Assembly (NCBI GenBank): GCA_017649705.1
Contig: JAGCGH010000137.1
Span: 1-40,656, forward strand
DNA length: 40,656 bases
Reading direction: 5' to 3'
Source of the DNA: a bacterium
GTDB taxonomy: Bacteria > Auribacterota > UBA3054
The translations under genes were made by a program, and so were the position numbers. Positions 3,470-38,423 of this stretch are shown here, piece after piece; the first letter of the stretch is position 1; every line of letters starts with the position of its first letter. Below the pieces are notes generated by a model, which saw only the letters and a program-made list of their open reading frames with translations, was not told the origin of the DNA and made no database searches.

Positions 3470-5611
3470 TTATTTATTCCTGCGGAAAGCGAGAAGGCCC
3501 AAGATTGACAAAGCCGCCAAAGCGAAGGCAGGCTCGGGGATGGGGCCCTCGTCCATGCCGCTGACGGCGAAAGCGAAGGTCTGGGGGAAGGTCATCATGC
3601 TGTAGCCGTGGACGCGGATCTCTAAGTTATCCCCGGCGTAGCAGACTGATGTCTCGTACCACTCGCTGTTGTTGGTGAATTCGTTGTGGACTCTCTGTCC
3701 GGCGTTGAAATATGTGAAGAGGCCGTCGAAGAACTGCAGGTCAAGGTCGTTTTGAAGCTGGGAGCCGGCGCCGGGAGTCCCGGGGGCGTCCGTCCAGACC
3801 AGGTTTATTTTGACCGGACCCGTTTCGTTTTTCTTGAAGACGTAGGTGGCGATGTCACCCTGGTTGCTGATGACGCCTTCCACGAAGATCACGCCGTTGC
3901 TGAGGCTTTTTTCCATGTCGATATGGCCGTAGCCGTTCACGCTGTTGGGGAAATCGTCGGGTATTTCCGTATAGCTGTCATATTGGCCGTTGCCCATCTT
4001 TCTGGCGCCGTGGATGAGAGCGCACTTAAGGAGGGCCGAGGAGGGCTTCTCAAAACCTTTCTCCTTAAGGGCCTGCAGCATGATGGCGGCGGCTCCGGTG
4101 GTCAGGGGCGTGGCCATGGAGGTGCCGTACATAACGGTGAAATAAGAACCTCTGCCGGGATAATACAGCTCGTTAGTTTCGTCGTCGCCGGATTCCGTGG
4201 AGACGATGTAGGTCCCGGGAGCCACCACTTCGGGTTTGAAGCGCTCGTCGCTTGCCGGGCCGCGGGATGAGAAATAAGCCATGCCCTGCTGGGTGCCGTT
4301 GTCAGGCGAGGCCACAAGGTCGTCCTTGAAAGGCTTGTCCTTTACTTGGAAAGCCGTGCCCCAGGTGGCGGTGACCTCCGGGCGGTAAGTTTCCGCCGCG
4401 CCCACGGTCAGGACGTTCTTGGCGGCGGCCTGGGGGCTTATGGTGCAGTTGCCGGCATAATCGATCTTGGTGTTGGCGTTGCCGGCCGCGAAAAGAACGA
4501 GCATGTCTGAAAGGTTGTTGCAGACGGTGTCAAGAAATTCCGAATAGGCGGTGTATTCGCCGTATTCTGTCGGATCCGCTCCGCCCCAGCTGTTGTTCAT
4601 GACGCGGGCTCCGGCTTCGTAGGCCGAATTAAAATCCTTTTCCGAGACCGTGACCACGTCGCCTCTTCTGCTCACGCCGATATTGACGATGTAGAGGTCG
4701 GCGTCCGGAGCCGATCCGGCGAAGGATCCTCCGATGTAGGGAGTCTTGCCGGTGCCGGTGGCGGAGCCGGCCACATGGGTGCCGTGGCCGTGAATGTCGT
4801 TCCAGGCGTTGCGGGACGTGTTGTTCTCGCCCACGATGCCGGCGATCTTCTTGCCCTGGAAATCAGGATGCAGAGCGTTGGCGTCGCCGGAGGTATTTCC
4901 TCTGTCGAGGCCGGTGTCCGCTATGGCGACCGTCACGCCTTTTCCCGTGTATCCCAGATCGTTCATGGGGGTCACGTTCATCAGTCCCGCGCTCTTCGCG
5001 ACGTTGTTGAAGACCTGGCATTTCGGCTTGGGACCAATTCTCAAGACGTCGCTTCTCAAGGAGAGCTGTTCAACGAGCGATGACCTGACCTTGGCTTCCA
5101 GGATGGGAGGATTCTGGGATATGGTCAGGATCTCGGATCCGCCTTTTTCCTCGAGATAATTTTTCACGGCTTCCGCGGCCTCTTTGGAAACGAGGCGCAG
5201 CGAGATCTCGGAAAAATCTTCCCCGAAGGATGAGACGCTTTTCCTGAAAAGTGAGGAAGTCTTGTATTCCGGAAGGTATTCCGCGGTGAAAAGAATGCTG
5301 AAGTTCAGTTTGAGTTTTTCCAGGGCTTCCTTGCTGCCCAGCATGATGTAGGCGTTGGGCGGCAAATGGCCGATGACTTTCAATCCCAGATCATTCACTG
5401 CCTCCAGTTCCTTGGCGTCAAAATTCTTTTCGGGCTGGACGATGAACTGGTACTCCCCGAGGGCCGTGGGAAGGCATTGCGTCGAGGAAGAGCTGGCAAC
5501 GGAGGGCGCGGAGGGGTCGATGGTGCACTCGCTGAGTTTAATGAGTCCCGGGTTGGCGAAAACCGCCGCGGCGGTCAGGATTGGAAGCAGAAGAAGAAGA
5601 AACTTTTTCAT
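3470..5611 (-). CDS. Subtilisin-like (S8) serine protease with PEP-CTERM anchor, copy 1
   Basis: A 713-residue secreted protease. It has a signal peptide (about 1-19), a prodomain-like region (about 50-200), and a complete S8 catalytic triad: Asp232 in ADTGLD, His276 in HGHGTHVAGS and Ser498 in GTSMATP. The oxyanion Asn is at 378 (FAAGN). After the catalytic domain comes a jelly-roll-like segment with WTDAPGTP and NDLDLQF, as in KP-43-type subtilases. The C-terminus is PEPAF, a hydrophobic helix and FRRNK, a PEP-CTERM sorting signal read by an exosortase and seen in exopolysaccharide-making Gram-negatives. No exosortase gene is in the window. It lies six bases after copy 2, with no clear ribosome binding site. 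The substrate is unknown. Confidence 0.92.
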   Translation of the reverse strand: MKKFLLLLLPILTAAAVFANPGLIKLSECTIDPSAPSVASSSSTQCLPTALGEYQFIVQPEKNFDAKELEAVNDLGLKVIGHLPPNAYIMLGSKEALEKLKLNFSILFTAEYLPEYKTSSLFRKSVSSFGEDFSEISLRLVSKEAAEAVKNYLEEKGGSEILTISQNPPILEAKVRSSLVEQLSLRSDVLRIGPKPKCQVFNNVAKSAGLMNVTPMNDLGYTGKGVTVAIADTGLDRGNTSGDANALHPDFQGKKIAGIVGENNTSRNAWNDIHGHGTHVAGSATGTGKTPYIGGSFAGSAPDADLYIVNIGVSRRGDVVTVSEKDFNSAYEAGARVMNNSWGGADPTEYGEYTAYSEFLDTVCNNLSDMLVLFAAGNANTKIDYAGNCTISPQAAAKNVLTVGAAETYRPEVTATWGTAFQVKDKPFKDDLVASPDNGTQQGMAYFSSRGPASDERFKPEVVAPGTYIVSTESGDDETNELYYPGRGSYFTVMYGTSMATPLTTGAAAIMLQALKEKGFEKPSSALLKCALIHGARKMGNGQYDSYTEIPDDFPNSVNGYGHIDMEKSLSNGVIFVEGVISNQGDIATYVFKKNETGPVKINLVWTDAPGTPGAGSQLQNDLDLQFFDGLFTYFNAGQRVHNEFTNNSEWYETSVCYAGDNLEIRVHGYSMMTFPQTFAFAVSGMDEGPIPEPAFALAALSILGLLAFRRNK

Positions 5612-5617
5612 ATTTTT

Positions 5618-7714
5618 TTATTTGGTTTTTCTGCCAAGAAGCAGAAGGGTTAAAAACGCGAAAAGGACTATGGAAGGCTCGGGCACGATCTCGTCCACGC
5701 CGGAAACGGCCAGGGCGAAGGCCTGGGGAGAGCGCATGAGATTGGCGGCTTTCACGATAACCTCGATGTTATCGCAGAGCGGGAATTCCTCCACGCGGAC
5801 TTTTTCAGAAACGTTCAGGGTGTCGGTGCCGGATCTCAATCCGTTGGGAAGATAGGTGGTCTCCCCGTCCGTAACTTCAAGGTCAAGGTCGTTGATGAGG
5901 GCTTTCTCCGCTCCCACGCTTCCCTGCCTGTCGGTCCAGCAGAGGGTGACGCAAAGGGGACCCGGAGTTGTCTTCTCAAAGGCGAAGGTGATTTCGTCGC
6001 CGGTGTTTTTGAAGGAATCCTCAATGGCGAAAAGCTTGCCGCAGCCGGGAGCGATGCTCTCTTTCAGATCGACGTGCCCGAAGCCGTTCACGCAGTTCGG
6101 GACCTTAAGGGGGATCTCTTCGTTGGTCCTGTACTGTCCCCTGCCCATGGAGCGCGCGCCGTTGATAAGCACCGCCCTCACCAGCGCCGAGGAGGGATTC
6201 TCAAAGCCGTGCTCCCTGAGATACTGCATAATGTCGGCGCAGGCTCCCGCCGTGAGAGGCGTGGACATGGAGGTGCCGGACATGAAGGTGTAATAGCTCA
6301 CCCTTGTACCGTTGTTAAGGTAGTCGTAAAGGGATTCCGTGGATTTGACCTGGGTGCCGGGGGCGCAGATGTCAGGCTTGGCGCGGCCGTCCTTGGCGGG
6401 CCCCCTGCTGGAGTTCATCATCATCCCCTGCTGGACGTCGTTGGCGGGATAAGCGATCCTGTCATCGTAAAAAATGCTCCCGGGAGAGGCGCCGTAAGTG
6501 GCGTAGGTCGTGTAAACGTCCGGACGATAGTTTTCGGAGGCGCCCACCGTGATGACGTTCTTGGAAACAGCCGCCGAACCCATGGTGCAGTTGCCCTCCG
6601 TTATGATGTCCTTGTTGTTGTTGCCGGCCGAGAAAAGCACCAGATAATCCGGATATCTGCTGCAAATCTGGTCCCAGGCGCGGGCGCTGCTGTTGTAGGT
6701 GCCGTCGCCGCCGGTACCGTAGGAATTGCTCATGATGCGGGCGCCGGCATTGTAGGCTAACTTGACGTCACTCTCGTCGGGAGCAGCGATCCCGGTGCCG
6801 GCTCCGCCGCAGCAGATGAAGTAAATGTCGGCGTCCGGGGCCATGCCGGCCGCGCCGGCATCCACCGTTCCGTTGCCCAGGACCGAACCGGCCACATGGG
6901 TGCCGTGTCCGTTCAGATCGCTCCAGTCAGTCCTGGAGGTATTGTAGCTGCAGACGACGCCGGTGATGTTTTTCCCTTTGAAATCCGGGTGAATGGTGTC
7001 GGGATCCCCGCTGTCGAACCCGGTGTCGGCGACGCAGACGGTAACGCCTTTTCCGGTGTAACCCATATCGTTGGCCGCCTCGACGTTCATCAGGGCCTCC
7101 GTCTTGGCGACGTCGTTGTTTATGGTAAACACAGGCTCTTCCTCAACGTTCACCACGGCGCTGAGACGGGTGAGCTTCGGGACCAGATCCCAATTTATCT
7201 CCGCCCTGATCATAGCCGCGCTCTCGCTGTAGAATTCGCATTTGGACGCGCCGTTATCTTTGAGGAACTTTTCCACTTCCTCGTATTTCGAACCGGAAGC
7301 GAGAATGATGAAAGCGGAGAAAGGCTCGCTTTGGGCCGACATGGCTTTGGCGGAGGCGCTGTCGGTCTTGTATTCCGGAAGATACTCCCCGGCGTAAAGG
7401 ATCTCGCAGTACGCCTTCAGTTCCTCCAGCTCGTCCATGGTCGCCAAAAGATGATAAGCGTTAGGCGGGAAGAAATCCGTAAAGACGATGCCCATCTTCT
7501 CTATGGCCTCGGCCTCCTCGAAGCTGAAGTTATGCCTCGGCTGAACGATGAACTGGTATTCGTTCTGCGCGGTGGGAGCGCACTTCATTTCGGAAACGCT
7601 ATTAATGGAAGCGCTCTCGGGATCGATGACGGTCTCCCTGAGCCTGATGGGGCCGGGGTCGGCGAAGGCTCCCAAAGATACGGCCAAAAGCGAAAGAAGG
7701 ATGATTTTTTTCAT
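5618..7714 (-). CDS. Subtilisin-like (S8) serine protease with PEP-CTERM anchor, copy 2
   Basis: A 698-residue paralogue of its two neighbours with the same order: signal peptide (1-18), N-terminal prodomain-like region with the shared YLPEYK motif near 111, triad Asp230 (ADTGFD), His270 (NGHGTHVAGS) and Ser482 (SGTSMSTP), oxyanion Asn365 (FSAGN), a jelly-roll-like region with LCWTDRQG and NDLDLEV, and a PEP-CTERM tail (VPEPS, hydrophobic stretch, GRKTK). It differs from the others in MMMNSSRGPA where they have MAYFSSRGPA, and in SNSYG for NNSWG. These changes suggest a shifted substrate preference but leave the catalytic residues intact. It sits six bases after copy 3 and six before copy 1. 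Confidence 0.92.
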   Translation of the reverse strand: MKKIILLSLLAVSLGAFADPGPIRLRETVIDPESASINSVSEMKCAPTAQNEYQFIVQPRHNFSFEEAEAIEKMGIVFTDFFPPNAYHLLATMDELEELKAYCEILYAGEYLPEYKTDSASAKAMSAQSEPFSAFIILASGSKYEEVEKFLKDNGASKCEFYSESAAMIRAEINWDLVPKLTRLSAVVNVEEEPVFTINNDVAKTEALMNVEAANDMGYTGKGVTVCVADTGFDSGDPDTIHPDFKGKNITGVVCSYNTSRTDWSDLNGHGTHVAGSVLGNGTVDAGAAGMAPDADIYFICCGGAGTGIAAPDESDVKLAYNAGARIMSNSYGTGGDGTYNSSARAWDQICSRYPDYLVLFSAGNNNKDIITEGNCTMGSAAVSKNVITVGASENYRPDVYTTYATYGASPGSIFYDDRIAYPANDVQQGMMMNSSRGPAKDGRAKPDICAPGTQVKSTESLYDYLNNGTRVSYYTFMSGTSMSTPLTAGACADIMQYLREHGFENPSSALVRAVLINGARSMGRGQYRTNEEIPLKVPNCVNGFGHVDLKESIAPGCGKLFAIEDSFKNTGDEITFAFEKTTPGPLCVTLCWTDRQGSVGAEKALINDLDLEVTDGETTYLPNGLRSGTDTLNVSEKVRVEEFPLCDNIEVIVKAANLMRSPQAFALAVSGVDEIVPEPSIVLFAFLTLLLLGRKTK

Positions 7715-7720
7715 AAGTTT

Positions 7721-9829
7721 TTATTTGGTTTTTCTGCCCAGGAAGAGAGCGATTAAAAGAGAGATTAAAGCGAAAGCCGGTTCGGGGACCACCTCGGAAT
7801 CCATGCCGGAAACAGCAAGCGAAAAGGTTTGCGGGCCCTGCATGACGTTGTAGCCTTTCACGGTTATCTCTATGTTTCCGCCGGCGGGAAAAGCGTTTGA
7901 CCTGAAACGTTCCACGTTGTTGATGGAGTCGCAGTGTTCGCTTGAGCCGTCGCAGTAGTATTCGTCTTTCCCGTTGGAAACGGTTATGTCGAGGTCGTTG
8001 ATCAGAGCCAGCTCGGCGCCGACGGTCCCGGGATAGTCGTTCCAGACAAGCGTGGCGGACACGGGGCCGGAAACTGATTTGGTGAAGACGTAGGTCTTTT
8101 CGCAATCGGTGTCGTCTATGACGCCGTCGTAAAGGAAGAGCCTGCCGTTTTCCGGCCTTAAGCTCTCGGCAAGGTCGATGTGACCGAAACCGTTGACGCC
8201 GTTGGGATCTTCCGCGGGGATCTCAGTGTAGTTGTCGTACTGACCAGTCCCCATGTTCCTGGCGCCGTTTATCAGAAGCGCCTTGACAAGCGAAGAGGAG
8301 GGATAAGTAAAGCCCTGTTCAATGAGGAACTGCATGGCGTCCGCCGCGGCTCCCGTCGTCAAGGGCGTCGCCATGGAGGTTCCTTCCATTACGGTATAAT
8401 AGCTGCTCCTGGTCCCGTTGTTTTTACTGTCCCAAAGAGATTCCGTCGAGATTATCTGGGTTCCGGGAGCGACAATGTCCGGTTTATATCTTCCGTCCCT
8501 GGCGGGGCCGCGGGATGAGAAATAGGCCATGCCCTGCTGGGTGCCGTTCTGCGGGGAAGCTGTGAGGTCCGTGTTGAAAGGCGCCGCCACGTTGGAGTAA
8601 AGGCTGCCGTAGGTGTAGGGTCTGTCGGGGCGGTACGATTCCGCGGCGCCCACCGTGAGGACGTTTTTGGCGGCGGCCTGGGTGCTTAAGGTGCAGTTGT
8701 TTTCCGTATCTATCTTTTTGTTGCTGTTGCCGGCCGCGAAAAGGATCAGGAAATCCGGGTTGTTATAAGTGGCAACGTCGTAGTAAAGAGACGAAGTAGT
8801 GTATTTTCCGGCGATGTCGGTGCTGTACGCTCCCCAGCTGTTGTTCATGACGCGGGCGCCGCTGTCGTAGGCGCCGCCCATATCCGCCATTTCGGGAGGA
8901 TAGACGCTGGAAGAGTTGCCTCCGATGCAGATGAAGTAAAGAGACGCCTCCGGAGCGGTCCCGGCGTAAGTGCCGTTTTCATGAGCGCCGGTCCCCACCG
9001 CGGAGCCGGAGACGTGGGTGCCGTGGCCGTTGAGATCGCGCCAGTCGGTCCTTTCGGTGTTTTTGGAAGCGACGACGCCTATCACGTCCTTGTTCTGGAA
9101 GTCCTGGTGAATGTCATTTGGGTCTCCGCTGTCAAGACCGGTGTCCGCGACGCAGACCATGATCCCTTCTCCGGTGTAACCCAAAGTGTTCATCGCGTCG
9201 ACGTTCATGAGAGATTCGCTTCTGGCGGCGTTGTTCATGATCCTGGACTCGACTTCCTCCTCCACGCTGAAAACGTCGGAACGGAGGATGAGCTTGTCGA
9301 CTAGGCCGACGCCGCAGACCGCCCTTACGATGGGAGGGCAGTCACAGATCAGAGAAACCTCCTTCGCGCCTTCTTCCTTGAGAAAGGCCAAAAAATCCGC
9401 CGCGTAGTCCGGGCTTGTCAGAATAATGTTCAGTTTGACTTCGCTTCCAGCGCTGAAAAATCTGCCCACGGGAAGGCCGTTCTTGTATTCCGGAAGATAT
9501 TCGCTTACGTAAAGCAAAGCGTGCTTCTTTTCCAGGCTTTGCAAATTTTCCGGCGCGGCGAGCACTATGTAGGCGTTGGGAGGAACGAAGCCGATGAAGG
9601 CAATACCCGCATCTTCCAGCGCGGCGCGCTCTTTATTGGTGAAATTCTTCTCGGGCTGTATGAGGTATTGAAAGCGGCCGTTCCGGTCGGGGGCGCAAAG
9701 CTTTTCTCCCTTCGCCGTAATGGAAGGGGCCGCGGGATCAAGGGTAAAGTCCCTTAATCTTATTGGTCCCGGGTCGGCCAAAAGCGCCCCGGACATGAAA
9801 AGCATCAGCAATGATAGTGTTTTGCGCAT
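7721..9829 (-). CDS. Subtilisin-like (S8) serine protease with PEP-CTERM anchor, copy 3 (first gene of operon)
   Basis: A 702-residue secreted S8 protease, the promoter-proximal copy of the tandem triplet. Signal peptide 1-18; triad Asp229 (ADTGLD), His269 (NGHGTHVSGS), Ser485 (EGTSMATP); oxyanion Asn368 (FAAGN). The jelly-roll-like C-domain has LVWNDYPG and NDLDITV, and the PEP-CTERM tail is VPEPAFAL, a hydrophobic stretch and GRKTK. It is closest in motifs to copy 1 (MAYFSSRGPA and MNNSWG are shared). The start ATG at 9829 has a GAGGG ribosome binding site eight bases upstream. Members may process surface proteins or degrade external protein; the natural substrate is not evident. Confidence 0.92.
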   Translation of the reverse strand: MRKTLSLLMLFMSGALLADPGPIRLRDFTLDPAAPSITAKGEKLCAPDRNGRFQYLIQPEKNFTNKERAALEDAGIAFIGFVPPNAYIVLAAPENLQSLEKKHALLYVSEYLPEYKNGLPVGRFFSAGSEVKLNIILTSPDYAADFLAFLKEEGAKEVSLICDCPPIVRAVCGVGLVDKLILRSDVFSVEEEVESRIMNNAARSESLMNVDAMNTLGYTGEGIMVCVADTGLDSGDPNDIHQDFQNKDVIGVVASKNTERTDWRDLNGHGTHVSGSAVGTGAHENGTYAGTAPEASLYFICIGGNSSSVYPPEMADMGGAYDSGARVMNNSWGAYSTDIAGKYTTSSLYYDVATYNNPDFLILFAAGNSNKKIDTENNCTLSTQAAAKNVLTVGAAESYRPDRPYTYGSLYSNVAAPFNTDLTASPQNGTQQGMAYFSSRGPARDGRYKPDIVAPGTQIISTESLWDSKNNGTRSSYYTVMEGTSMATPLTTGAAADAMQFLIEQGFTYPSSSLVKALLINGARNMGTGQYDNYTEIPAEDPNGVNGFGHIDLAESLRPENGRLFLYDGVIDDTDCEKTYVFTKSVSGPVSATLVWNDYPGTVGAELALINDLDITVSNGKDEYYCDGSSEHCDSINNVERFRSNAFPAGGNIEITVKGYNVMQGPQTFSLAVSGMDSEVVPEPAFALISLLIALFLGRKTK

Positions 9830-9949: not shown

Positions 9950-11983
9950 TTAATCGTTTTCGACAACAAGCTCGGCGTTCATATTCTGCAGGAGTATCCC
10001 CTGCTTTTGATGCAGCCTCAAAAAAGCGCAGGGAGAAGCGTCCGTCTTGATGATCTTCTTTTCCGAAATGTTGAAGCTGAAGGGAACTTTTCCGAAATTT
10101 AAGACGACGTAGTCGAGATATTCGCCGCAGGAGATCTCGAAGACCAGGGCCTCCCCCGCCACCTCGAGGCGCATGAAGCTCCTGACCTTCGGAGAATCTT
10201 CGTAGATCTCGTGCAGGGCCGCGAACCTGGTCTCCTTGACGTTCTGGCGCCTGGCGATGAGAAAACTCTGGTCCGTTTTCCTGTAATGGGTTATCTCGCC
10301 CTTCCGCAGGATCGCTCCCCCGCCGGATCCCGTGAGGACCCTGGTGTCGCTCTGCCCCAGCATAATGGTCTTCAGTCCGTTGCCGTAGTCGCAGCTCCAC
10401 TGGGCGTTGGCAAGCTGCGAGGAGACGTCCTCCATAAGGCGGTACGCTTCCTCACGCCAGGCCGAACCCAAAAAACTTTTGGCGATGTCCTTGATCTCGT
10501 AACTCATTTCCGGCGCGGTTGTCCCCTTGAGAGTCAGGGCGCCGCCTTTTTCCATTTCCATGACCCATTCCGCGATGAAAGGCTCCTCTGAGGCGAGGGT
10601 GAAAACGTCCAGGAAATAAGCGTCCGTCATGAAAAGCGTGCGCCTGTAGCTTTTCATCTTTTCATAGGCGCCGCTTCCCTCCAGATCGATGAAGGTAAGC
10701 CCCTGCCGGCTCTCCGCGGCGAGGACAGAAGCGGCCGCGGGCTTCTGTTTCCCGTGGTCTATGACCACCGTGGAGGAGGAGACGGTGTGGGTGAAATAAT
10801 CCCGGCCCACCCTGGAGCTTCCGTCCTGCTGGCTTGCGCGCCCCATCAGGGGCTTTTCCCCTCCGTTAAGGGCCAGCGCCAGAAGATCGCCGAAGCGGCC
10901 GCCGCTGACGCTGATCAGCCTGGCGTAGCGCGCCTCCAGGCCCTTCTGCACCCGGGAGCGGGCCACCAGCCAGCCGGTCCCCAATGGATTGGTTATAAGA
11001 GGCCGATCCCCCGCCGGCGCGGCGCGGCGGGCCCTTGCGTAATAAAAGGCGGCGAAGCAGGGATCGTGGTTCGCGGCTTTTTCAAGGTCGATGAAAGCAA
11101 TCCCGTAGCGCACTGCCAGGATGAAGGCGGCCTTCGGTGAAAAGAGCGCGTCTTTTTCCCAGCCGCGTCCCGGCAGAATGTCCAGGGGCGTCATAAGTTC
11201 GGAGAGTTTCGCCGCCCACTCTTTTATTACCATGCCGGTGCCCTTGGAGAAATTCCCCCGCATCTGGAAAAGGTCGTCCCCGCTTCCGGCGAAGACTTCC
11301 GCCGCCTGGCAGACGTTCTCCAAAAGGGCGTGGCTGACGCCGATCTCCATGGCGGTCGCCATCGCGTCCCTGTTGAGGCTGGAGAGAAATTTCTTCAGGC
11401 CCATTTTGCCCTGGGTGGAAACGTCCATCCTTCCCGCGGCCACGCCGGCAAAGACCTTGTAAGCCGCGCTGAAATACTCCGCCGCCTTTTCGTCCGTGTC
11501 CGCTTCCCTGCGCCCGGCCATGCTGACGAGCCAGTTGTCCGCGGCGGCCCTCTCCACGGGATCCATGGAAGAACGCAGCGCGGCGTGTATTTTGGACAGT
11601 TCCGCGAAAGATCTTCTCTGGGGCATGTACTGGGGATAATTAAGGCGCAGGTTTCTGTATCCCGTCACGGCCTCCCTTATCCTGTAAACGTCCTTGTTCT
11701 TAAGCCCGATGAGGGTCTTTACCCAAAGGGCGGAGATCTTCTCCTCCGTCAGAAGGACCGGGTCCGCCGCCGCTTCGGGAGCGGGCTTTTTGTTTTCCAG
11801 GCCGCCTATTTTTTTCCAAAGATTGTCGCGCCCGTCGTTCCTCAGCGCCACGGTAAGGTCCCTTAAGCTGATCAGGGAATAGTTTCCGTAAACCGGCCAG
11901 AGGACCTCCTCCGCCAGCGCATCGCTTGTGAAAACGGAAGAGAGGAAAAAGAAAAGGATAGAAAATAAAAGCCGGCTTTTCAT
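9950..11983 (-). CDS. Secreted heparinase II/III-like protein
   Basis: A 677-residue exported protein with signal peptide (MKSRLLFSILFFFLSSVFTSDALA). The first about 350 residues are helix-rich, as expected for an alpha/alpha-barrel. From about 360 onward the order of motifs resembles the heparinase II/III C-terminal beta-sandwich: FGDLLALALNGGEKPL, then RDYFTHTVSSSTVVID near 393-409, then YRRTLFMTDAYFLDVF near 446-461, and a late ALHEIYED near 589. Such proteins are polysaccharide lyases acting on uronic-acid polymers. Where many members have an AHNTV motif, this one has SSSTVV, so activity is uncertain. It follows the AlkP-superfamily gene by seven bases and is closed by a terminator. Confidence 0.5.
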   Translation of the reverse strand: MKSRLLFSILFFFLSSVFTSDALAEEVLWPVYGNYSLISLRDLTVALRNDGRDNLWKKIGGLENKKPAPEAAADPVLLTEEKISALWVKTLIGLKNKDVYRIREAVTGYRNLRLNYPQYMPQRRSFAELSKIHAALRSSMDPVERAAADNWLVSMAGRREADTDEKAAEYFSAAYKVFAGVAAGRMDVSTQGKMGLKKFLSSLNRDAMATAMEIGVSHALLENVCQAAEVFAGSGDDLFQMRGNFSKGTGMVIKEWAAKLSELMTPLDILPGRGWEKDALFSPKAAFILAVRYGIAFIDLEKAANHDPCFAAFYYARARRAAPAGDRPLITNPLGTGWLVARSRVQKGLEARYARLISVSGGRFGDLLALALNGGEKPLMGRASQQDGSSRVGRDYFTHTVSSSTVVIDHGKQKPAAASVLAAESRQGLTFIDLEGSGAYEKMKSYRRTLFMTDAYFLDVFTLASEEPFIAEWVMEMEKGGALTLKGTTAPEMSYEIKDIAKSFLGSAWREEAYRLMEDVSSQLANAQWSCDYGNGLKTIMLGQSDTRVLTGSGGGAILRKGEITHYRKTDQSFLIARRQNVKETRFAALHEIYEDSPKVRSFMRLEVAGEALVFEISCGEYLDYVVLNFGKVPFSFNISEKKIIKTDASPCAFLRLHQKQGILLQNMNAELVVEND

Positions 11984-11990
11984 TTTGTTT

Positions 11991-13634
11991 TTAGAGATAC
12001 CCGAGATCCTTCAGCCTTTCCTGAAGCTTTTCCTCGTCCTCCTCCTCGCCCCTGGGGCATTCCCCGTAGGGAGCCTCCTGGTAGCGGCGGACGGGATTCG
12101 CCTTGATGAATTCCGGATCCATCGCGTCCGTGAGCGGCTGCCCGTCCAGGTCGGAGGAAAGCGGGATGCCCATCAGGGCGAGCATGGTGGGCGTGACGTC
12201 GGTGATCTCCGCGGTCATATTAAAGCCCTGCTTGATCTGCGGGCCCTGCAGCATGAAAATGCCAAATTGCCTGTGGTCCCCGGAGCGGGGCTGGCCGTGC
12301 TGGGTGCTCGGCATAATGACGCCGGCGGCGAAACCCTGGTTGAAGGAGTAGCCGGCGGCCGGCTCCAGATAAAGGTCGGAAGCGGAAAGGACGTGTTCGC
12401 CCACGTAGACGTCCTGGGGCTTGAAGACCCTCGTTATGACCTGCGTTCCGTCCTGGTCCCTCAATTCCAGAAGGTCCTTTGACAAAGCGTCCTGCAGCGC
12501 GGCGTACTCTTCTTTCTTCACGCAGCCCAAAAGCTCCCGGCCTTCCAAATTGATCCTCAGGCAGCGGGCGGACATGGAGGAGAAATACGCCCTCGCCCTG
12601 GACCAGTCCACGGCGGAAAGCGCCGTGGCGCTTCTGACGCTCTCGGCGCCCGCGCCGGCGGTAGCGCCCTTATCCAGCTGGGCCCTCCTGAATTTCAAAT
12701 AAAATTTCCAAAGTCCCAAACGGTCCAGGAAAGAGGAAACGGCGAGTTTCCACGCCGGGACTTTCCCGGCCTCGACGGCGTCCAGCCCTTCCCTTGTGAA
12801 AAGGTAGCCCTTGTCCCTGAGATAATTGTTGACGTAGATATCCTTTTTTACTTCGCCGAAACCGTGGTCGGAAATGACCATGACGGAAGTGTTCCCGTCC
12901 AGGCTGTCCAGGAATTCACCCAGCAGTTTGTCCAGGAAGACGAAGTGATCGCGGAACAGCGTGGAATAAGCCCCCTTTTTCTCGACCATGTTTTCCTTCC
13001 AGAAGAAGTGGAAAAGCCTGTCCATTTCCACGAAGGCGAACATGGCGAAATGGGGCTTCAGCTCGCGGTAGAGCTCCGCAAAAACTTTGAACTGCTCTTC
13101 GCAGTGAGCGTTCACCTGTTCGGCGAAGGCTTTGAAGTTCCCCTCGTGAAGAAGCCTGGAGGGCATGTCCACCTTGAAGGAGGGATGTTCTTTCAGGATC
13201 CTTTTCTTCAGTTCCGGAGGATAAGTGTAAGCGCAGTCCCATTCCGGCGTGCCGAAGCCGGAGATAAGGTATCCGTTGACTTTTTCCGGAGGATAAGTGT
13301 GGGGCACGTTCATGACCAGCACCCTTCCCCCCTCTTCGGAAACGTAATTCCAGATCGCCCGGCAGGCCCTGTCTTTCCTGTTTGTCAGGTGCAGGTCGTA
13401 ATCTTTTCCGCTGTAGGAGAAGAAATCGAAAATGTTGTGCTTTCCGGGATTGCGGCCGGTCACGGAGGAAGTCCAGCCTGGCGGCGTCAGCGGCGGGCAG
13501 GTGCTGTCCAAAGGCCCGCTTGTCCCGGCGTAGAGGCGGCCGAAATTGGGAAGCTCGCCGGCTTCCAGCAAGGGCTTCAGAACGGACCAGTCGGCGCCGT
13601 CCAGGCCCAGAATGAAAGTTTTATTGTTATTCAT
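11991..13634 (-). CDS. Alkaline phosphatase superfamily phosphohydrolase/phosphodiesterase
   Basis: A 547-residue protein from ATG at 13634. I chose this start because the fold begins at once with FILGLDGADW; upstream in-frame sequence from 13712 runs into repeat sites and lacks conservation cues. Family features: metal ligand Asp12, nucleophile candidate Thr55 in PPLTPPGWTS, Asp205 and His209 in EMDRLFHFFW, Asp256-His257 in ISDHGFG, and a late GDHRQFGIFM. This is the type I phosphodiesterase/nucleotide pyrophosphatase branch, often annotated as predicted AlkP-superfamily phosphohydrolase/phosphomutase. There is no signal peptide, so it is probably cytoplasmic. The substrate is unknown. It is co-directional with the heparinase-like gene and divergent from mraZ. 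Confidence 0.75.
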   Translation of the reverse strand: MNNNKTFILGLDGADWSVLKPLLEAGELPNFGRLYAGTSGPLDSTCPPLTPPGWTSSVTGRNPGKHNIFDFFSYSGKDYDLHLTNRKDRACRAIWNYVSEEGGRVLVMNVPHTYPPEKVNGYLISGFGTPEWDCAYTYPPELKKRILKEHPSFKVDMPSRLLHEGNFKAFAEQVNAHCEEQFKVFAELYRELKPHFAMFAFVEMDRLFHFFWKENMVEKKGAYSTLFRDHFVFLDKLLGEFLDSLDGNTSVMVISDHGFGEVKKDIYVNNYLRDKGYLFTREGLDAVEAGKVPAWKLAVSSFLDRLGLWKFYLKFRRAQLDKGATAGAGAESVRSATALSAVDWSRARAYFSSMSARCLRINLEGRELLGCVKKEEYAALQDALSKDLLELRDQDGTQVITRVFKPQDVYVGEHVLSASDLYLEPAAGYSFNQGFAAGVIMPSTQHGQPRSGDHRQFGIFMLQGPQIKQGFNMTAEITDVTPTMLALMGIPLSSDLDGQPLTDAMDPEFIKANPVRRYQEAPYGECPRGEEEDEEKLQERLKDLGYL

Positions 13635-13707
13635 ATGGATTATCTTAACAAAATCAAGGCGTTCAGGCAATACGCGCTCCGGGGGAACCCGCCTAAAAAA
13701 ACGTTCT

Positions 13708-13722
13708 CCCACTTAATCCCAC
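13708..13722 (-). promoter_or_regulatory. MraZ-box-like direct repeats facing the AlkP-superfamily gene
   Basis: On the minus strand GTGGGATTAAGTGGGAG holds two GTGGG units with a 10-base period (plus-strand CCCAC at 13708-13712 and 13718-13722), about 75 bases upstream of the leftward ATG. MraZ regulators are known to bind TGGG-type direct repeats with this period. Assigning this pair to MraZ is inference from similarity to the repeats at the mraZ promoter. Confidence 0.5.
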
Positions 13723-13741
13723 ATTTTTAGAAAAAACATGC

Positions 13742-13761
13742 TTACACACAACTTATCCACA
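13742..13761 (+). promoter_or_regulatory. Two DnaA-box-like 9-mers
   Basis: TTATCCACA at 13753-13761 matches the DnaA box consensus exactly. TTACACACA at 13742-13750 matches with one change. They are 11 bases apart, start to start. No dnaA, dnaN or rich box cluster is present, so this is not convincing as a replication origin. A role in transcription control is possible, or chance. Confidence 0.35.
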
Positions 13762-13887
13762 AGTTCAATCCGCCGTTTTTGCCTTTTCCGCCCCGGCAAG
13801 GCCAATTTTCTCCCACCAGCGTCTCTCCAAATAAGTTCTTAATATTAAGCAAGTTAATTTTTAATCAATCTTCCGGCGAAGGGTGAA

Positions 13888-13923
13888 GTGGGAGGGGGTA
13901 TTGACTTTGTGGGCTAAAGTGGG
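13888..13923 (+). promoter_or_regulatory. MraZ-box-like repeats overlapping the mra promoter
   Basis: Three GTGGG units lie at 13888-13892, 13909-13913 and 13919-13923. The last two are 10 bases apart and sit inside the promoter spacer; the first is 21 bases upstream of the second. MraZ is known to repress its own operon by binding such TGGG repeats on one face of the helix. The location here fits direct autoregulation by blocking RNA polymerase. Confidence 0.7.
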
Positions 13924-13930
13924 ATATAAT
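13901..13930 (+). promoter_or_regulatory. Sigma-70-type promoter of the dcw cluster
   Basis: TTGACT at 13901-13906 and a perfect TATAAT at 13925-13930 are separated by 18 bases. Transcription should begin near 13937, giving a leader of about 70 bases before mraZ. No comparable promoter is obvious further downstream in the cluster. Confidence 0.8.
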
Positions 13931-14006: not shown

Positions 14007-14456
14007 ATGGCGAAAGAGCGATACATAGGAACAGCCTCTTTGAAGGTCGACGCGAAAGGGCGCATAGCCGTTCCCGGGTTCTGCCGGGTGAACGGCGCGA
14101 CGCAGTTTTTCGTCACCTTCGGACGCAAGAGATTTCTGAAGCTCTATGACTGGGAGGAATTCTCCAAGAGCATGGAAGTTTTGGACGGCCTTGATCCCTT
14201 CGACGCCAGAACCGAGGAAATGAAGCGCGTAATGCTGGGCGGCAACAAGCTCGAAATAGATTCCCACGGTCGTTTGACGATCCCGAAGAATCTCCGCGAC
14301 TGGGCCGGCCTGTCAGGAGAGATCGTTGTCACCGGCGTCTCCTCCCATATGGAGATCTGGAACAGCGATGCCTTCGCGGCGGAATTCGCGGCCAACATCG
14401 CCGATCTCGGAAAGAACATGCAGGAAATCGCAGAAAACAGAAAAGAACCGAGGTAA
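14007..14456 (+). CDS. mraZ: Transcriptional regulator MraZ
   Basis: A 149-residue protein with two tandem SpoVT/AbrB-like (MraZ) domains, seen as DAKGRIAVP near residues 15-23 and DSHGRLTIPKNLRDWAGL near 85-102. MraZ is a DNA-binding, ring-forming regulator of the mra/dcw operon and usually its first gene, as here. The family is about 140-150 residues long. The start lacks a clear Shine-Dalgarno; TTTAAACC lies just before it. It is followed three bases later by rsmH. The GTGGG repeats at its promoter are the likely target. Confidence 0.95.
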   Translation: MAKERYIGTASLKVDAKGRIAVPGFCRVNGATQFFVTFGRKRFLKLYDWEEFSKSMEVLDGLDPFDARTEEMKRVMLGGNKLEIDSHGRLTIPKNLRDWAGLSGEIVVTGVSSHMEIWNSDAFAAEFAANIADLGKNMQEIAENRKEPR

Positions 14457-14459
14457 AAA

Positions 14460-15386
14460 ATGGAACACATCCCCGTCATGCTTTCGGAAGTTTGCTCTTA
14501 CATGCGGCTTGAAAGCGGCCAGCGCTGCCTGGACATGACGGTCGGATTGGCGGGTCACTCCGCAGCCATTTTGAAAGCTATCGCTCCCTTGGGTTTTCTT
14601 CTGGGCCTGGACCGCGACACTGAGACTCTGCCTCTGGCATACGAGCGTCTCAAAGCGACGGGCGGCGATTTTCTACTGAGGCATTCCGACTACGCCAAAG
14701 TAAGAGAAGTTTGCGCCGAGCTGGGTCTCAAAGACTTCAACGCCATACTCTGCGACTGCGGCGTCTCTTCCAAACAGCTGGACGATCCCGAAAGAGGCTT
14801 CGGCTTTGAAAGAGACTGCCCTCTGGATATGCGCCTCGACCGCAACGAACTCTTGAAGGCTTCTGATCTTTTGAACACCTGCCCGGAAAGCGAGCTGGCC
14901 GACATTTTCTTCAATTTCGGCGACGAACGTTTTTCCAGGCCCATCGCCCGCGCCATAGCATCGAGGCGGAAGGACAGGCCCTTCGCGACTTCGGAGGAGC
15001 TTGCCTCGCTGGTCTCCGGCGTTTACTACCGCTTCGGCTTCCGGCGCTCCAAGGTGCATCCCGCCACCAGGGTCTTCCAGGCTCTCCGCATAGCGGTGAA
15101 CCACGAGCTCAGATCGCTGGAGGAAGGGATCACGGGAGCGGTCGAGCTTCTGGCGCCGGGCGGCCGCCTGGTAGTCATCAGCTTCCATTCCGGGGAAGAC
15201 AGGATAGTCAAAAACCTTTTCCGAAACTTCAAGAAGGAAGGGAAAGGCCTGATCATAACCAAAAAACCCCTTACTCCCGGGGAAAAGGAGATCGCGGAGA
15301 ACCCCAGGTCCCGCAGCGCTCTTTTGAGAGTTTTCGAGAAAACTTCCGACCAAGGAGAAAACGATGCCCAGAGTGATCTACAGTAA
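14460..15386 (+). CDS. rsmH: 16S rRNA (cytosine1402-N4)-methyltransferase RsmH
   Basis: A 308-residue SAM-dependent methyltransferase (formerly MraW) that methylates the 16S rRNA decoding centre. It opens with the family signature MEHIPVMLSEV, has the SAM-binding segment DMTVGLAGHS near residues 25-34, the CDCGVSSKQLDDPERGF motif with LDMR, and the C-terminal VISFHSGEDRIVK motif. Length is normal. A Shine-Dalgarno-like CCGAGG lies upstream. Its 3' end overlaps the ftsL-like gene by 23 bases, so the two are likely translated together. Confidence 0.95.
   Translation: MEHIPVMLSEVCSYMRLESGQRCLDMTVGLAGHSAAILKAIAPLGFLLGLDRDTETLPLAYERLKATGGDFLLRHSDYAKVREVCAELGLKDFNAILCDCGVSSKQLDDPERGFGFERDCPLDMRLDRNELLKASDLLNTCPESELADIFFNFGDERFSRPIARAIASRRKDRPFATSEELASLVSGVYYRFGFRRSKVHPATRVFQALRIAVNHELRSLEEGITGAVELLAPGGRLVVISFHSGEDRIVKNLFRNFKKEGKGLIITKKPLTPGEKEIAENPRSRSALLRVFEKTSDQGENDAQSDLQ

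Positions 15387-34410: not shown

Positions 34411-38423
<4,013 letters not shown>

What the first reader, a model, noticed from the sequence alone, without database searches (positions are those of the whole stretch)
13701..13930. MraZ-box-like repeats on both sides of a divergent promoter region
GTGGG repeats with a 10-base period sit in the mraZ promoter spacer, and a second pair with the same period sits on the opposite strand upstream of the AlkP-superfamily gene. A fifth single site lies between. This suggests MraZ controls a gene pair outside the dcw operon, linking an AlkP hydrolase and a heparinase-like protein to division control.
Basis: partly seen in the sequence, partly recalled or inferred. 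Interest (0 to 1): 0.58.

Follow-up and report, generated by a model that had tools for sequence, protein, structure and literature searches.

The report
Second MraZ operator facing mraZ promoter
[quoted passage not shown] relatives suggest the extra copy belongs to the division cluster's control rather than to the neighbouring enzyme gene.

Summary
GTGGG-N5-GTGGG occurs exactly twice in the whole 2.12-Mb genome, both times here: 13909-13923 (+), inside the mraZ -35/-10 spacer, and 13708-13722 (-). A slightly looser pattern hits exactly twice in each of 8 same-genus genomes, all 16 hits in this intergenic region. The left pair, a single middle site and a tandem DnaA-box-like motif (13742-13761) are conserved blocks in diverged sequence. 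In two other families of the order (G008, G014) and in an unrelated genome (G116), a pair on the strand opposite to mraZ also lies upstream of mraZ, beside a different gene or none; two AlkP orthologues away from mraZ have no such repeats. So the left pair follows mraZ, not AlkP. Best reading: a second, inverted MraZ operator that works with the promoter pair, perhaps bridged by ring-shaped MraZ into a ~190-bp loop. Control of AlkP in this genus remains possible. Outside the order, opposed pairs sit at background (5 of 100 upstream rows, 99 distinct). MraZ binding, looping and DnaA binding are untested. The heparinase-like call could not be confirmed.

The parts
13708..13722 (-). left pair, GTGGG-N5-GTGGG: proposed second MraZ operator, opposed to mraZ
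   Evidence: 8 of 8 genus genomes as GTGGGNNNAAGTGG; 12 of 15 columns invariant against 0.14-0.35 in the flanks
13742..13761 (+). tandem DnaA-box-like motif, TTACACACA-AC-TTATCCACA (second copy a perfect 9-mer)
   Evidence: 8 of 8 genus genomes; 16 of 20 columns invariant
13812..13816 (-). single middle site GTGGG, 93 bp from the left pair and 94 from the right pair
   Evidence: GTGG in 8 of 8; left-to-middle distance 93 in 7 of 8, 94 in one
13888..13892 (+). further single GTGGG, not conserved
13901..13930 (+). mraZ-dcw promoter: TTGACT, 18-bp spacer, TATAAT
   Evidence: 28 of 30 columns invariant in 8 species
13909..13923 (+). right pair, GTGGG-N5-GTGGG inside the promoter spacer: canonical MraZ box position
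14007..14456 (+). mraZ (149 aa), first gene of the dcw cluster
   Evidence: PF02381, 5.2e-19
14460..15386 (+). rsmH/mraW; further downstream PBP transpeptidase, Mur ligases, FtsW, MurG-like, FtsQ-like, FtsA, FtsZ
   Evidence: PF01795
11991..13634 (-). divergent AlkP-superfamily gene (547 aa, ATG at 13634)
   Evidence: PF01663, 4.4e-34 on the longer ORF; start by conservation
9950..11983 (-). 677-aa protein in tandem with AlkP throughout the genus; fold not established
   Evidence: no Pfam or NCBIfam hit; pair kept in the genus loci; model pLDDT 37

Best explanation
The mraZ upstream region is a two-operator MraZ switch. Shown: a canonical box pair sits in the mraZ promoter spacer; a second, inverted pair about 190 bp upstream and a single middle site are conserved in the genus, and opposed pairs recur upstream of mraZ in two other families of the order. 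Inferred: MraZ, reported as a ring-shaped octamer, occupies both pairs (and the middle half-site) and bridges them, so the DNA between them is looped and the mraZ-dcw promoter is repressed more tightly than by one pair alone. The tandem DnaA-box-like motif inside the putative loop could couple this switch to replication initiation. In this genus the left pair also lies 84-91 bp upstream of the AlkP start, so AlkP may be co-regulated as a by-product.
For: Uniqueness: 2 hits per genome in 8 of 8 genus genomes, 16 of 16 here, reversed control 0. Conservation blocks. Left-right distance 187-190 bp in 8 of 8 although the stretches between the blocks have only 14-35% invariant columns. The opposed pair follows mraZ without AlkP: G008 pair at L012:817-831, within 1.1 kb that holds no ORF with a significant Pfam hit among the three tested; G014 pair at C179:5381-5395, that genome's only exact match. 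Non-genus order members 2 of 2 against 5 of 100 rows outside, Fisher p = 0.004. Independent case G116: exactly two hits of its box pattern in the genome, one per strand, 223 bp between 5' ends, with RNase P RNA upstream in the mraZ direction. A paper passage describes MraZ as an octameric toroid on repeats (PMC7761207).
Against: Outside the order opposed pairs are at background (mean best match 10.26 of 17 against 10.21 for the control, n = 86 rows), so this is no general MraZ feature. Distances differ between families (187-190, 206, 105 and 223 bp; for the genus, hand arithmetic for the rest) and are not all whole helical turns. G014 has a divergent gene that its pairs could serve, and its own promoter pair is degenerate. 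G250, the only other genome held in the order of G116, has no match to that pattern. No binding or expression data. Genus members are not independent.
Confidence: 0.5

Rival explanations
1. One reading: the left pair is mainly an operator of the AlkP/677-aa operon, so MraZ controls an envelope or sugar-processing unit next to dcw.
For: Orientation towards AlkP and 84-91 bp from its ATG in 6 of 6 genomes with both on one contig; AlkP and the 677-aa gene kept together in the genus; precedent that MraZ acts outside dcw in Corynebacterium (recalled, not seen in any call).
Against: AlkP orthologues away from mraZ lack pairs; the opposed pair occurs without AlkP in G008, G014 and G116; no consistent promoter at the pair: candidate -10 near 13772 in 5 of 8 genomes, TAARAT near 13642 in 5 of 8, each absent from the best-scoring lists of the others.
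Confidence: 0.27
2. The left pair is not bound by MraZ: another factor uses it, or it is a chance or relic repeat.
For: Short motif; the second half-site is GTGGA in G001-G005; no binding data.
Against: Same core, period and AAGTGG spacer edge as the mraZ pair, unique with it in 8 of 8 genomes, 12 of 15 columns invariant.
Confidence: 0.1
3. The tandem TGTGGATAA-type motif between the pairs is a third MraZ site with an 11-bp period rather than DnaA boxes.
For: It also reads GTGG-N7-GTGG; a paper passage reports that Mycoplasma MraZ binds a GTG repeat whose spacing differs by 1 nt (PMC5282649).
Against: TGTG and TAA edges are kept and TTATCCACA is perfect in 8 of 8; similar boxes lie upstream of a BamA-like gene without any 10-bp GTGG pair; the genome has dnaA.
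Confidence: 0.2

Closest known systems
MraZ box / autoregulated mraZ promoter (Eraso 2014 in E. coli; Fisunov 2016 in Mollicutes; both seen only as cited in papers read here)
   Same: mraZ heads dcw; direct GTG-core repeats with 10-bp period at the promoter (PMC5282649 and PMC7761207 passages)
   Different: a second, inverted, equally specific pair about 190 bp upstream plus a single site between; the passages read describe one repeat array only
MraZ control of targets outside dcw (Corynebacterium ftsEX, recalled; not found in the papers searched)
   Same: possible extra target next to dcw
   Different: the extra site follows mraZ, not the neighbouring gene
Looped repression by paired operators (for example Rco on pLS20, PMC4207663, seen in a search listing only)
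   Same: two distant operators around divergent transcription
   Different: MraZ looping has not been shown here
DnaA as transcription factor at division genes (B. subtilis ftsL, C. crescentus ftsZ; review PMC8203912, passages)
   Same: DnaA boxes ahead of division genes
   Different: here conserved in one genus, between two MraZ pairs; TTATNCACA was found once in 80 other mraZ upstream regions

Membership tests
MraZ box (right pair) | mraZ as first gene of a dcw cluster downstream | tested here: met
MraZ box (right pair) | GTGG-core direct repeats, 10-bp period, at the mraZ promoter | tested here: met
MraZ box (right pair) | bound by MraZ | not testable with these tools
   needs EMSA or ChIP
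MraZ box (left pair) | same core and period, conserved, unique in the genome with the right pair | tested here: met
MraZ box (left pair) | bound by MraZ | not testable with these tools
   needs EMSA or ChIP
AlkP operon as MraZ regulon member | site goes with the gene also where the gene is not next to mraZ | tested here: not met
   G014 and G009 orthologues, no GTGG pair in 450 bp upstream
AlkP operon as MraZ regulon member | site overlaps or adjoins the AlkP promoter | tested here: inconclusive
   no consistent minus-strand promoter
Looped operator pair | two sites for one protein at conserved distance | tested here: inconclusive
   distance 187-190 bp in 8 of 8 in the genus; that one protein binds both is inferred
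Looped operator pair | whole-turn phasing across lineages | tested here: inconclusive
   hand arithmetic at 10.5 bp per turn: about 18, 19.6, 10 and 21 turns
DnaA box | TTWTNCACA 9-mer, dnaA in the genome | tested here: met
DnaA box | bound by DnaA | not testable with these tools
   needs footprint or ChIP

The most novel reading that the evidence does not exclude
MraZ rings bridge two inverted operators into a ~190-bp loop that encloses DnaA boxes, so that one switch reads both MraZ level and replication initiation before the whole dcw cluster is transcribed; the two-operator design arose at least twice (this order and G116).
Probability: 0.25. Interest if true: 0.65.

Novelty: new variant of a known kind. 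Interest (0 to 1): 0.45.

Why it matters
MraZ is among the most widespread bacterial regulators, yet what its ring shape is for is, as far as I know, open. A conserved second, inverted operator gives a concrete place to test whether the ring bridges DNA. The DnaA-box-like motif between the operators makes a link between replication initiation and the division cluster directly testable.

Tried and rejected
AlkP-driven conservation was tested through AlkP orthologues away from mraZ: no pairs. An origin of replication as the cause of the DnaA-like motif: the GC skew across the region shows no clear switch and only two boxes lie here; dnaA itself is on another contig, so I do not favour it, without excluding it. 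A general law that mraZ genes carry inverted upstream pairs was rejected: 5 of 100 rows, at background. Structure of the 677-aa protein: pLDDT 37, not used for a fold search. PDB sequence search with AlkP: no hit. Rfam on the window: no hit. Eraso 2014 is not held; 'DnaA yllB ftsL' gave no paper.

Counting notes. The 100 survey rows hold one gene twice (G016:C9 as L027 and L261), so 99 are distinct; L022 (20 bp), L023 (192 bp), L015 (433 bp) and L259 are short. The survey took mostly the first-listed rows, not all 200 genomes with a match. In one search, G004 has one further exact GTGGG-N5-GTGGG match whose place was not listed; it is not explained. G007 has no AlkP match in the assembly and G005 has the region split over two contigs. 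In one search the order set kept 7 of 10 members; by my reading of its rules G005 and G007 fell out as too short and G014 as lacking a promoter pair of that pattern.

Full report
Observation. The window holds two GTGGG-N5-GTGGG pairs, 13708-13722 on the minus and 13909-13923 on the plus strand. Shuffles of the window give 0.06 such pairs on average. In the whole 2,122,416-base assembly there are only these two. The plus pair fills the 18-bp spacer of a near-consensus promoter, TTGACT-TATAAT, ahead of mraZ and a dcw cluster with RsmH, a PBP transpeptidase, Mur ligases, FtsW, a glycosyltransferase-28 (MurG-like), an FtsQ-like protein, FtsA and FtsZ. The minus pair lies upstream of a divergent AlkP-superfamily gene (PF01663) whose start is ATG 13634, not the GTG of the mechanical ORF list.

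Conservation in the genus. The pattern GTGGGNNNAAGTGG hits exactly twice in each of the 8 genomes, once per strand; all 16 hits are in this intergenic region and the reversed control gives 0. With the stricter GTGGG-N5-GTGGG, the genus has 12 hits, one of them in G004 at a place that was not listed. Invariant columns in the 8-species alignment: left pair 12 of 15, DnaA-like motif 16 of 20, middle site 4 of 5, mraZ promoter 28 of 30; the stretches between them 0.14 to 0.35. Distances are tight: left to middle 93 bp in 7 of 8 and 94 in one; middle to right 94-97; left to right 187-190; right pair to mraZ ATG 98 in 7 of 8 and 99 in one; AlkP ATG to left pair 84-91 in the 6 with both on one contig. 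A further single GTGGG at 13888 is not conserved.

Does the left pair belong to AlkP or to mraZ? AlkP orthologues of 46-47% identity exist in G014 and G009. In G014 AlkP and mraZ are on different contigs; in G009 no mraZ was found. Neither has any GTGG pair in 450 bp upstream. Conversely, two further families of the order have an opposed pair upstream of mraZ without AlkP beside it. G008 has CCCAC-N5-CCCAC at L012:817-831, a single site at 941 and its promoter pair from 1037; the 1.1 kb upstream holds no ORF with a significant Pfam hit (three ORFs tested) and no AlkP match exists in that genome. G014 has its only exact genomic match at C179:5381-5395, a second looser pair near 5200-5213, and a divergent glycosyltransferase gene starting at 5047. 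The other five order genomes gave no mraZ match. So all 10 order members with an mraZ have an opposed pair.

Survey. In 100 mraZ upstream rows from outside the order (99 distinct; 80 fetched earlier), 80 have a plus pair within 200 bp and 5 have an opposed pair within 620 bp; the reversed control over both strands gives 14, so 5 is background. Fisher's test of 10 of 10 against 5 of 100 gives 6e-11, inflated by relatedness within the genus; with the two non-genus families alone it is 0.004. Searching each region for a copy of its own box gives a mean best opposed match of 10.26 of 17 against 10.21 for the control (n = 86 rows), while 7 of 7 usable order members reach 13 or more. One outsider stands out: G116, from outside the window's phylum (its kinship is 'same domain'), has exactly two hits of its box pattern in the genome, one per strand, with 5' ends 223 bp apart, and RNase P RNA upstream in the mraZ direction, so no divergent gene adjoins its opposed pair. 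Its sister G250 has no match.

Mechanism. Passages describe MraZ as an octameric toroid on repeats (PMC7761207), as a repressor in E. coli and M. genitalium (PMC8475190), and the Mollicute site as (AAAGTGKN3)3 (PMC5282649). Both DxxxR positions (D15, R19, D85, R89) are invariant in 16 aligned MraZ proteins. I infer that MraZ holds both pairs and bridges them. Not shown: binding, looping, effect on either promoter. Phasing is suggestive in the genus (187-190 bp, about 18 turns) but not uniform across lineages.

DnaA-like motif. TTANNCACA-NN-TTATCCACA occurs here in 8 of 8 genus genomes; three genomes (G004, G006, G007) have one further copy each, upstream of a gene that I read from its sequence as BamA-like, and G000 has similar boxes there; the BamA reading rests on recognition, not on a family search. 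dnaA is present. TTATNCACA occurs once in the 80 fetched upstream regions of other genomes. A review reports DnaA at the B. subtilis ftsL promoter and the C. crescentus ftsZ promoter (PMC8203912 passages). An 11-bp-period MraZ site is an alternative.

The neighbour. AlkP and the 677-aa gene stay together in the genus. The 677-aa protein has no family hit; predicted secondary structure is helical first and strand-rich later, which would fit a heparinase II/III layout (recalled), but the model is too poor to say.

Literature scope. Searches for MraZ listed no paper on a second, inverted MraZ operator; key papers (Eraso 2014, Fisunov 2016) are not held or were not read, and MraZ structures 9qlg, 9qlr and 9sx6 in the PDB have no paper that I found here. 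So I claim no absolute novelty.

Verdict. Real, conserved, and better explained as part of mraZ control than as a link from AlkP to division. Confidence 0.5 for the two-operator reading, 0.27 for AlkP control as the main role.

Noticed in passing
G000:C35 (L342:1544-1615), L331, L332, L333: Tandem or clustered TTATCCACA boxes upstream of a BamA-like gene in four genomes of the genus (a tRNA-deaminase-like gene lies near it in three of them); may be a DnaA-controlled envelope gene.
   Followed up: partly
L341 (G116:C33:22200-22214): Unrelated genome with an opposed MraZ-box pair between RNase P RNA and mraZ, unique in that genome with the promoter pair.
   Followed up: partly
window 3470-9829: Three subtilase-family genes (PF00082) in tandem on the minus strand behind AlkP and the 677-aa gene.
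   Followed up: no
G009-G013: Five order members with no mraZ match; incomplete assemblies or real loss not separated.
   Followed up: no
G016 and G023: Two full-length mraZ-like genes per genome in one family of the phylum.
   Followed up: no
window 34411-36246: Protein with weak matches to Ser/Thr kinase models at the N-terminus and to LysM/cell-wall hydrolase models at the C-terminus.
   Followed up: no
G004: One extra exact GTGGG-N5-GTGGG match elsewhere in the genome, place not listed.
   Followed up: no
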